Assembly (NCBI GenBank): GCA_023374025.1
Contig: SIJG01000001.1
Span: forward strand, 3,681,946-3,745,945
From: Heterodera schachtii
Lineage: Eukaryota; Nematoda; Chromadorea; Rhabditida; Heteroderidae
DNA: 64,000 nucleotides
Direction of reading: 5' to 3'
Below the pieces are notes generated by a model that searched no databases, was not told the DNA's origin, and saw only the letters and a program-made list of their open reading frames with translations. The translations under genes were made by a program, and so were the position numbers. Positions within the stretch are counted from its first letter, which is position 1; the number at the start of each line of letters is the position of its first letter. Shown here in pieces: positions 12,398 to 20,340 of the stretch.

Positions 12398-13092
12398 GGA
12401 ACGAATGGGATGGCGATTCGTGCACACCTCCGAAGAACGAACTGTGCTGCCTGCTGATGTATTAAAAGAGGATGTTTGTAAATCACTTGGCCCTGAGTTG
12501 CCTCTCTGTATATTCACTGGTCAAAATAACTTATTTTGTATGTTATTTCGATTCACTATTGTGCATTTCCTAAATCTTGGCAGACCTGGAATAAACTAAT
12601 TCTTTATGTGTTGTGAGTGCGTTGATTCGAGTGTGCGGCGGTTTTTTAGCGCAATAACCAAATGACCTATTTGCACCAGTTTCCCTGCATTATTTTGGTA
12701 CTGAAGTGTCAATTTTCACTTGGACCCAGTTGTCCCAGTGCTCTGATGGCATCGGCTCGACTTTATTCTTTGATTTTTAGACTTCGCTCGTCAAGTGTTT
12801 TCGAATGATACCAAATTTGTCCGAATTTGACCGTTTTAAAAGGTCAGGAGCCGGCAATGGTAAAGAATTGTGGTCCCTAATTTAACTTTTTTATTTCGGG
12901 CTCGAACCCCATTTTAAGAGGTTTTCGAGGGTGCTGATTACGAATTTGAACTCGAACCCCGGACCAGAATTCGAACAAAAATTTGAAAGAATTTTTTAAT
13001 AAAAGTTAAAACTGGGCAAGTTTTGGTGCAAATTACTCATTTTTATCCAATAAATAATTGAAGCATTATTTTACATCAAAATAAATAGTTGT

Positions 13093-13310
13093 TGAAACAT
13101 ATGAACGAGCGGGGAAGCTTTTGAGGGAAAAACTATGGGGCGGGCCGGCTTTGAACCGGCGTCTCTGGCTTTCCGGACCAGTGTTCTACCAGCTGAACTA
13201 CCGACCCTGCCCTCTCCAGCTCCCCACTTTGCTCGATCATATAGGATCAATTGTTGCCTCAATTGATCCATTAATCTTCCTCTCGGGGAAGCTTCTTCTT
13301 CTCTATCTCA
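13093..13310 (-). repeat. LTR-like direct repeat A (3' LTR on the minus strand)
   Basis: 218 bases beginning TGAAACATATG and ending TATCTCA on the plus strand. It matches 13480-13697 without a visible difference. It contains the tRNA-like gene at 13136-13207. Confidence 0.8.
13136..13207 (-). tRNA. tRNA-like gene in LTR A (anticodon position reads GGA; C33)
   Basis: 72 bases fold as a full cloverleaf: acceptor GGGTCGG/CCGCCCC (6 of 7 pairs), D stem GTTC/GAAC with AGCTGGTA loop, anticodon stem CTGGT/GCCAG with loop CCGGAAA, four-base variable region, T stem GCCGG/CCGGC with loop TTCAAAG, discriminator A. A run of five T follows after three bases, a Pol III stop. Position 33 is C instead of the near-invariant U. 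A GGA anticodon would specify Ser, but there is no long variable arm. It is therefore probably a tRNA-derived promoter/transcript, not a decoding tRNA. Confidence 0.6.
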
Positions 13311-13658
13311 TTCCGGGCCTCTCTTATGGACGTCCTCGTCCATTCTCTTCTTCTCTGCGTCAGCTGCTGCTCGGCTGAAGGTTGCAGATTCGATCACTTC
13401 CAGTGCCAGCTTTATCCTCTCTCTTCTTTTTCGCTTCTCTGCTGCTGCTGGGTGAACTGGAAGCCGCCAAGGGTCGCCATGAAACATATGAACGAGCGGG
13501 GAAGCTTTTGAGGGAAAAACTATGGGGCGGGCCGGCTTTGAACCGGCGTCTCTGGCTTTCCGGACCAGTGTTCTACCAGCTGAACTACCGACCCTGCCCT
13601 CTCCAGCTCCCCACTTTGCTCGATCATATAGGATCAATTGTTGCCTCAATTGATCCAT
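13308..13658 (-). CDS. Short open frame running from the 5' LTR through the TRIM interior
   Basis: 116 codons starting MDQLRQQLILYDRAKWG in the LTR, crossing the tRNA-like gene and ending at the far LTR edge. The part outside the LTR (about 57 codons) is strongly charged and Ala-rich (AAAEKRKRRERIKLALEV...). I recognise no domain; it may be a gag relic or chance. Confidence 0.25.
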   Translation of the reverse strand: MDQLRQQLILYDRAKWGAGEGRVGSSAGRTLVRKARDAGSKPARPIVFPSKASPLVHMFHGDPWRLPVHPAAAEKRKRRERIKLALEVIESATFSRAAADAEKKRMDEDVHKRGPE

Positions 13659-13697
13659 TAATCTTCCTCTCGGGGAAGCTTCTTCTTCTCTATCTCA
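13480..13697 (-). repeat. LTR-like direct repeat B (5' LTR on the minus strand)
   Basis: Second 218-base copy. Zero observed differences from repeat A implies a recent insertion, because LTRs are identical when an element integrates. Confidence 0.8.
13523..13594 (-). tRNA. tRNA-like gene in LTR B (identical to that in LTR A)
   Basis: Same 72-base cloverleaf, A- and B-box motifs and T-run as at 13136-13207, displaced by 387 bases. Confidence 0.6.
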
Positions 13698-14062
13698 TTG
13701 TTAAATGAATTAGAAGCTTTTACCCCAGAAAAACGCATCCTTGGAAAAAAGTTTTCAACTTTTTGTTCGAATTCGGGTCCGGGGTTCGGAATTAGACAAA
13801 TCCGCTTTCAGATCCGTAATCAGCACCCTCGAAAACCCGTTAAAATGGGTTTCGAGCCCGAAATAAAAAAATAAATTTAAAAAAAAATAAATTCGGGACC
13901 ACATTCTTTACCATTGCCCATTTTTAAGCTTTTCTATCGTTCTCAGCACCTAAGAAAACCTATAAAAGTGTTTTTGTGCGATTTTGAGCCGATACCGTAT
14001 TCGGCAATTTTTCCCAAATTGTTTTGACCTTGGTTTTTTAATTTCTCCATTTTTTTTAAGGA

Positions 14063-17942: not shown

Positions 17943-20340
17943 TCAACATATTTTGCACGATCTTTTGCAGAACAATTTCATAAACTTGGACCCCTTCTCG
18001 CACTCGCCGTTCTGTGCCCAATAAGTGCAGAAATGGTTCCTGTCAATGCACGACTGCAGTTGGTCCGCTAAATCAATGATTTATCATCGTTTTCGGCACT
18101 TTTTCTTAACTCACTTCGCTCTCTTTCCTTTTCATCACAGAAACCGCACGATTTGCGGCAATAATGGCGCATATATTTGGCAGAGTGCACACAATGGCCC
18201 AACCGTTCCCACATTTCGCAGTGCGCGTTAAGGTCCACGCATCGCTCTCTCCCACTGATTTTGCTGAGTCCCCTCGTCCTCCCGCCTTTCGGTGTGCCAT
18301 TGCCTGCAAATTGAACAGCGATTGGTGTGTTTTCGCTTTTGTGCCTTGCCTTTGTTATGCCTCCGTTCGCCCCGCGTTGACCAAATGGACAAAGTGATGA
18401 ACTTCTTGGCCACATTTGGCCACTTCGTTCTCCTCTCCTTTGGCTTCGTTTTGTTTCGGAATGCCAAATGCGTCGTCGTTTTCTCTGGCTCCGTTTCCGT
18501 CTCTGTCGTTGCCGCTGTCTCTTCCGTTGTGCCTCTCTCTGTCTCTTCCGTCGTCGTCTCCGTCTCTGCCCCGTCGTCCGTCGTCGTCTCTTCCGTTTGC
18601 TCTGTCGTTTCCTCTTCCCCCGTCGTTGGTTCGCTCTCTTCCGTCGTCGTTTGCTCCTCCGTCTGCGTCGTCTTCGTTTCCGCCGTCGTTTCGCTTGTCC
18701 GCTTCGGTGCCGTCGTCGTCGTTTCCGTCGCTGGGCCTTCGCTGTCGCATCGGTACAATTTGTTCACTTTCATCGCATCGATTTCACTCAATTTGTGCCT
18801 AAATTCGTCCTCTGATTTCTTTGCCCAATTTCCCTTCAAACCTTTGTCCAATTTCCACGCTTTTCGACTTCTTAGAAATGCAATTGTCAGAATGCCCCCT
18901 CCCTTTTCCCAAACCGGCACAATCGTCGCCCTTCCATTGCGTGAAAATGCCAATTTGTGGTAATGCATCACCGAGCCGTAGTCATACGGCATTCCAAGAG
19001 GGTCGATGATTTTCTTTGGGTACTTCTCGAAGTTTCGCAGCATTCCCGGCCGCACATTGTCCTCCAAAAGATCCACGTATTCGTCTCGGTCTGTGCGCGA
19101 ATGTTCGTGGAAAAAGCCCAACGCATGCATCTGAACAGAGGGGGGGGGGGGGGGGATGAATCGGTGGCAAAGTTCGATTGGACATGCCAATTCGTGGGCA
19201 ATGATTCCCTTGGAGAAGCATTTGTCCACCTCCAAAGACACCGTCTGATTTCCCCCCGCTCTTCCGACGTACGAAGAGCACCTGACAAAGGGACCGACCG
19301 CCGCTTTTCATGCCAAAACCACGCCTTACGCACCCCAATCCGAAGTTCCGTCTCACATAAATGAAGTCGGATTCGGTACTTTGTCTCGGGACGAAGCGAA
19401 TGCACGTTTTGCCTTAAGGCATTGGCCCTTTTTTTCTTTCGTTTGGCCAATCCTTCCCTTCCAAATTGCGACTTGCCTTTGTATTCGTCAAATGCGCTGG
19501 CAATGGCGGCTCTTTGACTGGAAATGAGTCCATTTGTCTCCGTAGTGCCAACCCCTCACTCACAGCGCACTCATTCCCTCCTCAAGCATATACGGCACTC
19601 GCCCTTCGTGCCACAGTTTGTTCGGGTACGTTTGAGTGTTCAACGAACTGTAATACTATGGTAATGGGACGATTATCTGTTCAAATGTAGCAAAGAAAAT
19701 CAGCGCATGTCAAAAATTCCTTTTTTGTCCTTCCTTTGGTTTTTCCTTTGCTTTTTGGCCTCTCATTAATTTTTTATTTCATTGGCATACAAAAATGAAC
19801 TGAACTGATCAATCCCTTAATTAGGCTTACCCCCCCCCCCCAAGTGACGTTAACTTTCACTTACTGGCTGAGAAAAGATCCGATCAAAGTCCCCTTTTGT
19901 CCGTTGTCGTCCTTCGTCAGCTACGGACATTTGTCGTAAATTGCCAATTGTCTGTGAGTTTTGGTCGGCTTTCGTTGTCGGAGGAGCGGTCATTCCGAGG
20001 ATATCGCCTTGAGAATGATTAAACCTTCTTTTATGAACAAATCACGCAATCATTCGCTTCCCTTTTCATTTATTACCTTCGAATAATTCGTAGTTCAAAA
20101 TCGAGTCCAAATCCTTCAAAGTCGGTTTTTGGGCTAAAATTAAATTGGTTTTAGCAAAGCCCAATTAATTCGACGGGTCATTCGCTCACTCGGAGTTTTC
20201 TCCGCGAGATCGAAATCCTCGGGGAGGAGAAAGTGTTCAGCAATTTCTGTGGGAATAAAGTAATTAAAGAATGTATTAAGAGGAAATGGAAATGCCAAAA
20301 AACACCCAATGAAAAAAGCGGAGAAAACCAAAAAGCCAAC
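17943..20340 (-). CDS. Astacin metalloprotease (nematode NAS type) with two ShK domains
   Basis: Secreted zinc protease. Hydrophobic segment near 20250-20340 ([19 protein letters not shown]), then propeptide ([37 protein letters not shown]). The catalytic domain begins [17 protein letters not shown] and continues [49 protein letters not shown] joined to [19 protein letters not shown] (HExxHxxGxxHE), and the Met-turn [13 protein letters not shown] Thr/Glu-rich linker (about 18470-18740) precedes two ShKT domains: [17 protein letters not shown]... and [17 protein letters not shown]...CKRSCKIC, then TGA at 17943. Two introns use GC donors: AAAG|GCAAGT near 19485 and TTG|GCATGT near 19195, the second splitting the zinc motif. 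The start codon is unresolved. It is convergent with the pocket-protein gene. Confidence 0.9.

What the first reader, a model, noticed from the sequence alone, without database searches (positions are those of the whole stretch)
13093..13697. Young TRIM-like element carrying a tRNA-like gene in each LTR
Seen: two apparently identical 218-base direct repeats with TG...CA ends, a TTGT target duplication, a 169-base interior, a TGG-starting PBS-like sequence directly inside one repeat, and a purine-rich run at the other. Each repeat holds a 72-base cloverleaf with Pol III A/B boxes and a T-run. Known: Cassandra-type TRIMs of plants carry 5S rRNA promoters in their LTRs. An LTR with a tRNA-type promoter in a nematode would be a parallel arrangement I have not seen described. 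Inference: LTR identity implies recent movement by an autonomous partner.
Basis: partly seen in the sequence, partly recalled or inferred. Interest (0 to 1): 0.85.

Follow-up and report, generated by a model that had tools for sequence, protein, structure and literature searches.

The report
Nematode mini-retrotransposon with tRNA-like LTRs
A tiny, recently mobile, protein-less retrotransposon of a cyst nematode carries a tRNA-like, probably Pol III, promoter in each of its end repeats; the type was named Helenus in 2024 from other organisms, and this is a nematode example with two unrelated sister families found in the same genome.

Summary
Read on the minus strand, the window holds LTR(218)-interior(169)-LTR(218). 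The LTRs are identical, the target duplication is TTGT, and each LTR carries a 72-nt tRNA-like sequence (Rfam 60.5 bits). It is a mobile family: 7 intact loci in the same genome (2 are LTR-int-LTR-int-LTR arrays), and 13 complete solo LTRs among 30 fetched loci, 12 with 4-bp duplications, all different. A paralogous empty site shows a single TTGT.
The window is Heterodera schachtii or a very close relative. Two further families have unrelated LTRs and interiors: family 3 with a clear tRNA match, family 2 with a tRNA-like unit that I recognised by eye only. In all three a T run follows within 4-6 nt. Families 1 and 2 share a 14-nt primer-binding site; family 3 matches 18 nt of tRNA-Arg(TCG).
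The kind is known. Kojima (2024, PMC10886601) described "Helenus" (TRIMs with tRNA-like LTRs) from six animal phyla, without nematodes. So this is a new member in what appears to be a new phylum. Pol III transcription is inferred; no autonomous helper was found; the tRNA-like part is not significantly more conserved than the rest of the LTR.

The parts
13089..13092 (.). target site duplication TTGT (left copy)
   Evidence: sequence; single copy in the paralogous empty site
13698..13701 (.). target site duplication TTGT (right copy)
   Evidence: sequence
13480..13697 (-). 5' LTR of the element (218 bases, TG...CA)
13093..13310 (-). 3' LTR of the element, identical to the 5' LTR
13311..13479 (-). 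interior, 169 bases, too short for the usual retrotransposon proteins
   Evidence: 23 matches in the genome
13464..13479 (-). primer-binding site TGGCGACCCTTGGCGG directly after the 5' LTR; first 10 nt complementary to the tRNA-Arg 3' end with CCA, then one extra T, then GGC
13311..13325 (-). purine-rich tract AAGAGAGGCCCGGAA before the 3' LTR (putative PPT, interrupted by CCC)
   Evidence: sequence
13523..13594 (-). tRNA-like sequence in the 5' LTR (A box TAGTTCAGCTGG, B box GTTCAAAGC)
13136..13207 (-). tRNA-like sequence in the 3' LTR
13515..13519 (-). T5 run (putative Pol III terminator) 4 nt after the tRNA-like sequence, 5' LTR; present in 33 of 33 aligned complete LTRs
13128..13132 (-). 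T5 run, 3' LTR
13631..13656 (.). 26-base hairpin palindrome (10-bp stem) in the U3-like part of the 5' LTR
13244..13269 (.). the same palindrome in the 3' LTR

Best explanation
It is a Helenus-type TRIM: a non-autonomous LTR retrotransposon whose LTR carries a tRNA-derived Pol III promoter and terminator. Shown here: dispersed precise insertion with a 4-bp duplication, LTR pairs more alike within an element than between elements, solo LTRs, a PBS next to the 5' LTR, and a tRNA-like unit with a T run in sense orientation in all 33 complete LTRs aligned. Inferred: Pol III starts at the tRNA-like unit of the 5' LTR, some transcripts read through the first T run and end at the same T run of the 3' LTR, so the tRNA-like sequence is the R region (U3 about 103, R about 80, U5 about 35 nt). 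The RNA is packaged and reverse-transcribed in trans by a Gypsy-like element, primed by tRNA-Arg, and integrated by that element's integrase. Identity as a Helenus-type TRIM: about 0.95. Pol III steps: about 0.5-0.75. Read-through with the tRNA-like unit as R: about 0.35.
For: Copies, duplications and solo LTRs. In 9 adjacent LTR pairs of 7 loci 0-1 positions differ (mean 0.33; one pair also has a gap), against a mean of 2.6, range 0-6, between those loci; a variant private to L007 is in both its LTRs. Empty site. tRNA-like unit with A/B boxes and T5. Two further families without shared sequence but with like anatomy: family 3 (L101) and, more weakly, family 2 (L084). Primer: four tRNA-Arg genes with a fitting 3' end; family 3 PBS 18 nt perfect to tRNA-Arg(TCG), families 1 and 2 10 nt contiguous and then one extra base. 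Precedent with 4-bp duplications in animals: PMC10886601.
Against: No expression data. A T5 run inside the 5' LTR should stop most Pol III transcripts before the interior, so read-through must be assumed. The tRNA-like part is not significantly less variable than the rest of the LTR (11 of 72 against 35 of 146 variable columns, Fisher p 0.16; minor variants per base 0.8% against 2.1% before and 1.3% after it). Degraded copies exist that have lost much of the tRNA-like unit (L014, L050, L039, L040). The tRNA-like unit of family 2 is found by neither Rfam at E<=1 nor ARAGORN, its B box has a mismatch and its fold is not significant (z -0.84); that of family 1 folds with z -1.68. The PBS of families 1 and 2 is an imperfect match to tRNA-Arg. 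No autonomous partner shares interior or LTR in what was scored. 3 of 7 intact loci (L003, L005, L006) lack a target duplication.
Confidence: 0.75

Rival explanations
1. An ordinary Pol II TRIM that captured a tRNA gene or tRNA-SINE in its LTR as a passenger; the tRNA-like part does nothing for its transcription.
For: The tRNA-like part is not significantly more conserved than the rest of the LTR; the T5 run would block a Pol III genomic RNA; the C at position 33 and the missing long arm show it is no working tRNA-Ser.
Against: Three families of unrelated sequence in one genome each have such a unit in sense orientation about the middle of the LTR, each followed by a T run after 4-6 nt (family 2 by eye only). 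T5 is kept in 33 of 33 complete LTRs and the 18-nt A-box stretch in 26 of 33. Kojima reports conservation around the boxes in other Helenus families.
Confidence: 0.2
2. Tandem duplication or a multicopy tRNA gene cluster, not a transposon.
For: Two family-1 loci are LTR-int-LTR-int-LTR arrays.
Against: Dispersed copies on many contigs with different flanks, TG...CA borders, distinct 4-bp duplications, an empty site.
Confidence: 0.01
3. A tRNA-SINE moved by a LINE.
For: tRNA-like A/B boxes.
Against: Two LTRs around a PBS and interior, fixed TG/CA ends, 4-bp duplications of fixed length.
Confidence: 0.02

Closest known systems
Helenus (Kojima 2024, PMC10886601)
   Same: TRIM length (605 bp; range given there 311-1263), tRNA-like sequence with A/B boxes in each LTR, PBS and purine tract, 4-bp duplications as in animal Helenus, solo LTRs, several families per genome, mostly no functional tRNA, tandem arrays (reported there for LTR-11_DR)
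   Different: Nematoda is not among its six animal phyla; a search of its main text for terminator words found them only for Cassandra; no sequence comparison with the Helenus consensus sequences was possible here
Cassandra (plants)
   Same: TRIM with a Pol III promoter and terminator in the LTR; short tandem arrays of about three LTRs (passages)
   Different: carries 5S rRNA, not tRNA; plants; PBS TGGTATCAGAGC
Ajax (nemerteans)
   Same: TRIM with a Pol III promoter-like part in the LTR
   Different: 5S rRNA-derived, 5-bp duplications (abstract)
TRIMs of other animals (ant PbTRIM, bivalves, Echinococcus)
   Same: small LTR-interior-LTR elements without proteins (titles and abstract starts only)
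   Different: no small-RNA promoter in the LTR mentioned in the lines I saw

Membership tests
Helenus | short LTR-interior-LTR element without proteins (TRIM) | tested here: met
   218+169+218 bases; 7 intact loci
Helenus | tRNA-derived sequence in the LTRs | tested here: met
   Rfam RF00005 60.5 bits in both LTRs of the window; by alignment present in 33 of 33 complete LTRs; partly lost in some degraded copies
Helenus | A and B box conserved | tested here: met
   both consensus patterns in families 1 and 3; family 2 A box only, B box one mismatch. 26 of 33 family-1 LTRs keep the 18-nt A-box stretch, 28 of 33 the B-box stretch
Helenus | PBS complementary to a tRNA just inside the 5' LTR | tested here: met
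   family 3: 18 nt perfect to tRNA-Arg(TCG); family 1 (the window): 10 nt contiguous, then one extra T, hence weaker
Helenus | polypurine tract before the 3' LTR | tested here: inconclusive
   AAGAGAGGCCCGGAA in family 1 is purine-rich but interrupted by CCC
Helenus | 4-bp target duplications in animals | tested here: met
   family 1: 12 of 13 complete solo LTRs and 4 of 7 intact loci; family 3 CTTT, one locus; family 2 unclear: 4 bp in one, 5 bp in two places
Helenus | sequence similarity to a described Helenus family | not testable with these tools
Helenus | mobilised by an autonomous LTR retrotransposon (Gypsy in animals) | tested here: inconclusive
   no partner sharing interior; LTR search scored 40 of 214. 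None of 150 scored integrase matches (of 602 candidates) lies within 10 kb of the PBS places or of the nine places outside family 1 (by eye); a weak test, as few coincidences were expected by chance and 452 candidates were not scored
TRIMp3 | transcription by Pol III | not testable with these tools
   no RNA data
Cassandra | 5S rRNA sequence in the LTR | tested here: not met
   Rfam scan of the window gives tRNA only
functional tRNA-Ser gene | long variable arm, U33 | tested here: not met
   72 nt; anticodon loop CCGGAAA in 32 of 33 LTRs, the other with one extra base; the requirement itself is recalled

The most novel reading that the evidence does not exclude
The LTR is a complete Pol III transcription unit, tRNA-type promoter plus terminator, and the retrotransposon genome is a Pol III read-through transcript whose R region IS the tRNA-like sequence. 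This design arose at least three times in one nematode genome, in unrelated elements held together only by a shared tRNA-Arg primer, and hence perhaps by one helper. Each element would make two RNAs: an abundant tRNA-sized one that ends in the 5' LTR, and a rare genomic one of roughly 465 nt.
Probability: 0.35. Interest if true: 0.6.

Novelty: new member of a known kind. Interest (0 to 1): 0.42.

Why it matters
It extends tRNA-promoter TRIMs (Helenus) to nematodes, as far as my searches could see, with three unrelated families in one genome that point to the same primer tRNA. Such copies can inflate tRNA annotations. The near-identical LTR pairs, private 4-bp duplications and the conserved T run make it a good case to test whether an animal retrotransposon genome can be a Pol III read-through transcript.

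Tried and rejected
Autonomous partner by interior: 22 of 22 first-look candidates scored, 23 matches. All 23 lie in loci seen, and each has LTR pieces of the same TRIM beside it, intact or degraded. By LTR: only 40 of 214 candidates scored, so a partner may be hidden. By integrase: 150 of 602 candidates scored; by eye none within 10 kb of the PBS places, a weak test.

PBS leads. TGGCGACCCTTGG occurs 23 times, reversed control 0: 14 in family 1, 3 in family 2, 6 elsewhere. Of these 6, C32:184068 follows a CA but has no frame over 114 aa in the 6 kb read downstream. C38 and C39 are a related pair without an LTR-like end, and L079, L082 and L083 belong to the repeat group below. C42:466586 (one mismatch) is not next to an LTR end. 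CATGGCGACCCT occurs 23 times, but the reversed control gave 8. Of 7 places outside families 1 and 2, six were new and were read: one (C86) is family 3; the other five were set aside by eye, some because ATGGCGACCCT may be a start codon context.

Larger repeat group: TGGCGACCCTGGCAGG occurs exactly 33 times and 3 times with one mismatch; the reversed control gave 4 at up to one mismatch. I read 16 of the 32 exact places other than family 3, as 156-base pieces. An LTR-like CA stands 2-3 nt before the PBS; no Rfam match at E<=1 in them. I could not see whether they code for proteins.

Primer: no tRNA gene fits the family-1 PBS over 13 nt plus CCA (one mismatch allowed). The tRNA-Arg match came from a looser pattern: 8 places, control 2. 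Four are the tRNA-Arg genes; the other four were not looked at. Selection on the tRNA-like part: not significant. Absence of T runs in the interior as a Pol III sign: dropped, as about 0.4 runs are expected at that composition (my arithmetic) and family 2 has one. Other nematode genomes could not be searched. I changed one score after checking: confidence of the best explanation from 0.9 to 0.75, because family 2 is recognised by no tRNA program and because the statement includes untested Pol III steps.

Full report
WHERE IT IS. The genome searched (G000) has 178.5 Mb in 356 contigs. Of eight long reading frames of the window scanned against Pfam, one matched: an astacin-like frame at 18228-19304 on the minus strand. 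Its best hit is a Heterodera schachtii protein. The exon stretches align almost without mismatch; the overall 76% comes from intron gaps and a diverging 3' end. Globodera pallida is next at 55%. I take the window as H. schachtii or a very close relative, on this one protein.

OBSERVATION. The element lies on the minus strand: LTR 218, interior 169, LTR 218, the LTRs identical, TTGT duplicated. In this orientation the tRNA-like sequence is in sense, the PBS (TGGCGACCCTTGGCGG) follows the 5' LTR without a gap, and a purine-rich stretch precedes the 3' LTR.

A MOBILE FAMILY. The genome search gave 46 matches with the whole element, the window copy included (40 of 196 candidates scored), 41 with the LTR (40 of 214 scored) and 23 with the interior (22 of 22 scored). 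The LTR counts are lower bounds. Seven loci hold intact LTR-interior-LTR (C1, C86, C89, C28, C93 and the arrays on C15 and C36). Four of the seven have a 4-bp duplication; L003, L005 and L006 do not. Among the 30 best-scoring fetched loci, 13 are complete solo LTRs: 12 have a 4-bp duplication, all 12 different, and L029 has none. Solo LTRs beyond those 30 were not read. Within the seven loci, adjacent LTRs differ at 0, 0, 0, 1, 0, 0, 0, 1 and 1 positions (one pair has a gap besides), against a mean of 2.6 (range 0-6) between loci. A variant private to L007 is in both its LTRs; one shared by both LTRs of L005 occurs in L012 as well. This is as expected if both LTRs come from one RNA. Two align across the junction with element-free sequence: the window copy with L017 (131 of 181 identities, a single TTGT) and L017 with L019 (97 of 127). 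So insertion was precise and duplicated 4 bp. Degraded copies exist too, some without much of the tRNA-like unit (L014, L050, L039, L040).

THE tRNA-LIKE UNIT. Rfam scores 60.5 bits in each LTR of the window. In the 33 complete LTRs aligned (drawn from the best-scoring loci), the T5 run 4 nt after the unit is kept in 33, the 18-nt A-box stretch is unchanged in 26, the B-box stretch in 28, and the anticodon loop CCGGAAA in 32. Columns vary in 11 of 72 tRNA positions against 35 of 146 others (p 0.16), so I do not claim special conservation. The call Ser(GGA) is not credible as a decoding tRNA: no long variable arm, and C at position 33 (that both matter is recalled knowledge).

TWO MORE FAMILIES. 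Following the PBS led to two others. Family 2 (L084, C229): LTR 205, interior 302, an LTR-int-LTR-int-LTR array. Its LTR holds a tRNA-like unit that I recognised by eye: pairing ends, an A box, a near B box and a T5 run 6 nt on. Neither Rfam at E<=1 nor ARAGORN reports it, and its fold is not significant, so this family is the weaker case. Its genome search gave 16 matches from 9 of 9 scored candidates, among them a head-to-head inverted pair on C9. Its duplications look like TGAT (4 bp, L089), AGCGT (5 bp, C229 array) and TCGAC (5 bp, L090). Family 3 (L101, C86): found through and read. LTR 237 and 234 (the only difference a 3-base gap, inside the tRNA-like unit), interior 130, duplication CTTT, tRNA matches of 45.6 and 48.1 bits, T4 run after 4 nt. 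I found one locus of it and made no copy search. BLAST at E<=1 finds nothing shared between the three families except the first 10-14 nt of the PBS and matches of 9-14 nt. If the one T run of 4 or more fell at random in each LTR, being within about 10 nt after the unit in all three would have odds of about 1 in 10,000. This is my arithmetic, after the fact, with the family-2 borders set by eye.

PRIMER. Four tRNA-Arg genes, two ACG and two TCG, end in CCTGCCAGGGTCG or TCC-variants of it at the T loop. The family 3 PBS is complementary to 18 nt of tRNA-Arg(TCG) with CCA; families 1 and 2 to 10 nt, then one extra T, then GGC. The patterns showed no tRNA gene that fits families 1 and 2 better; four of the eight places were not looked at. 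The same PBS, 18 nt fitted to tRNA-Arg(ACG), stands in a larger repeat group: 33 exact places of the 16-mer in all, family 3 included, of which 16 others were read as short pieces (the 18-nt fit computed for L103). I would look for the helper there, but could not show that it codes for anything; none of the 150 scored integrase matches (of 602) lies within 10 kb of those places (by eye; weak).

HOW IT WORKS. Shown: structure and history of an LTR retrotransposon, and a tRNA-like unit with T run in sense in the 33 complete LTRs aligned. Inferred: Pol III transcription, with the tRNA-like unit as R region. Cassandra is the model: its transcription runs from the 5S sequence of the 5' LTR to that of the 3' LTR (statement in PMC10886601; [quoted passage not shown] PMC10853983, two passages). 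The difficulty is that the T run in the 5' LTR must be read through.

KNOWN OR NEW. [quoted passage not shown] I read its abstract, sections 2.1, 3.1 to the first part of 3.6, 4, the tables and legends, and passages of the rest. Animal Helenus has 4-bp duplications, its PBS region resembles Gypsy elements, and tandem arrays are noted for LTR-11_DR. The words nematod-, Heterodera, Caenorhabditis and Globodera do not occur in its main text. Searches for Helenus/TRIMp3 with nematode, Helenus with retrotransposon, Heterodera with LTR terms, TRIM with nematode, and solo LTR with nematode listed no nematode report by title or abstract start. Only open-licence PMC papers are covered, one search listed 20 of 261 papers, and Repbase and Dfam were not searchable. 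PMC12859917 mentions Helenus in one sentence (passages). So: a new member of a known kind, in what appears to be a new phylum.

VERDICT. Interest moderate.

Noticed in passing
window 12869-12996 and 13745-13903: The TRIM sits between the arms of an imperfect inverted repeat (73- and 44-nt arms 89% and a 24-nt pair 88% complementary). Related sequence lies in L017; possibly a foldback or MITE-like element used as landing site.
   Followed up: partly
window 13631-13656 and 13244-13269: A 26-nt hairpin palindrome in the LTR. Of 33 LTRs, 15 have loop TGGCGA (equal to the start of the PBS), 14 AGGCAA, 1 another loop change, and 3 a stem base changed or lost.
   Followed up: partly
L092 (C9:2739800-2740590): Family-2 LTR and interior pieces form a head-to-head inverted pair without an evident target duplication, perhaps a rearranged or self-integrated cDNA.
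   Followed up: no
L102-L117, also L079, L082, L083: A repeat group with an LTR-like end 2-3 nt before a tRNA-Arg PBS. L079, L082 and L083 have the same 14-nt PBS variant as families 1 and 2; L079 and L082 have downstream tandem units of about 100 bp.
   Followed up: partly
L003, L005, L006: Intact family-1 copies with identical LTRs (one gap in L006) but no target duplication: possible ectopic recombination products.
   Followed up: no
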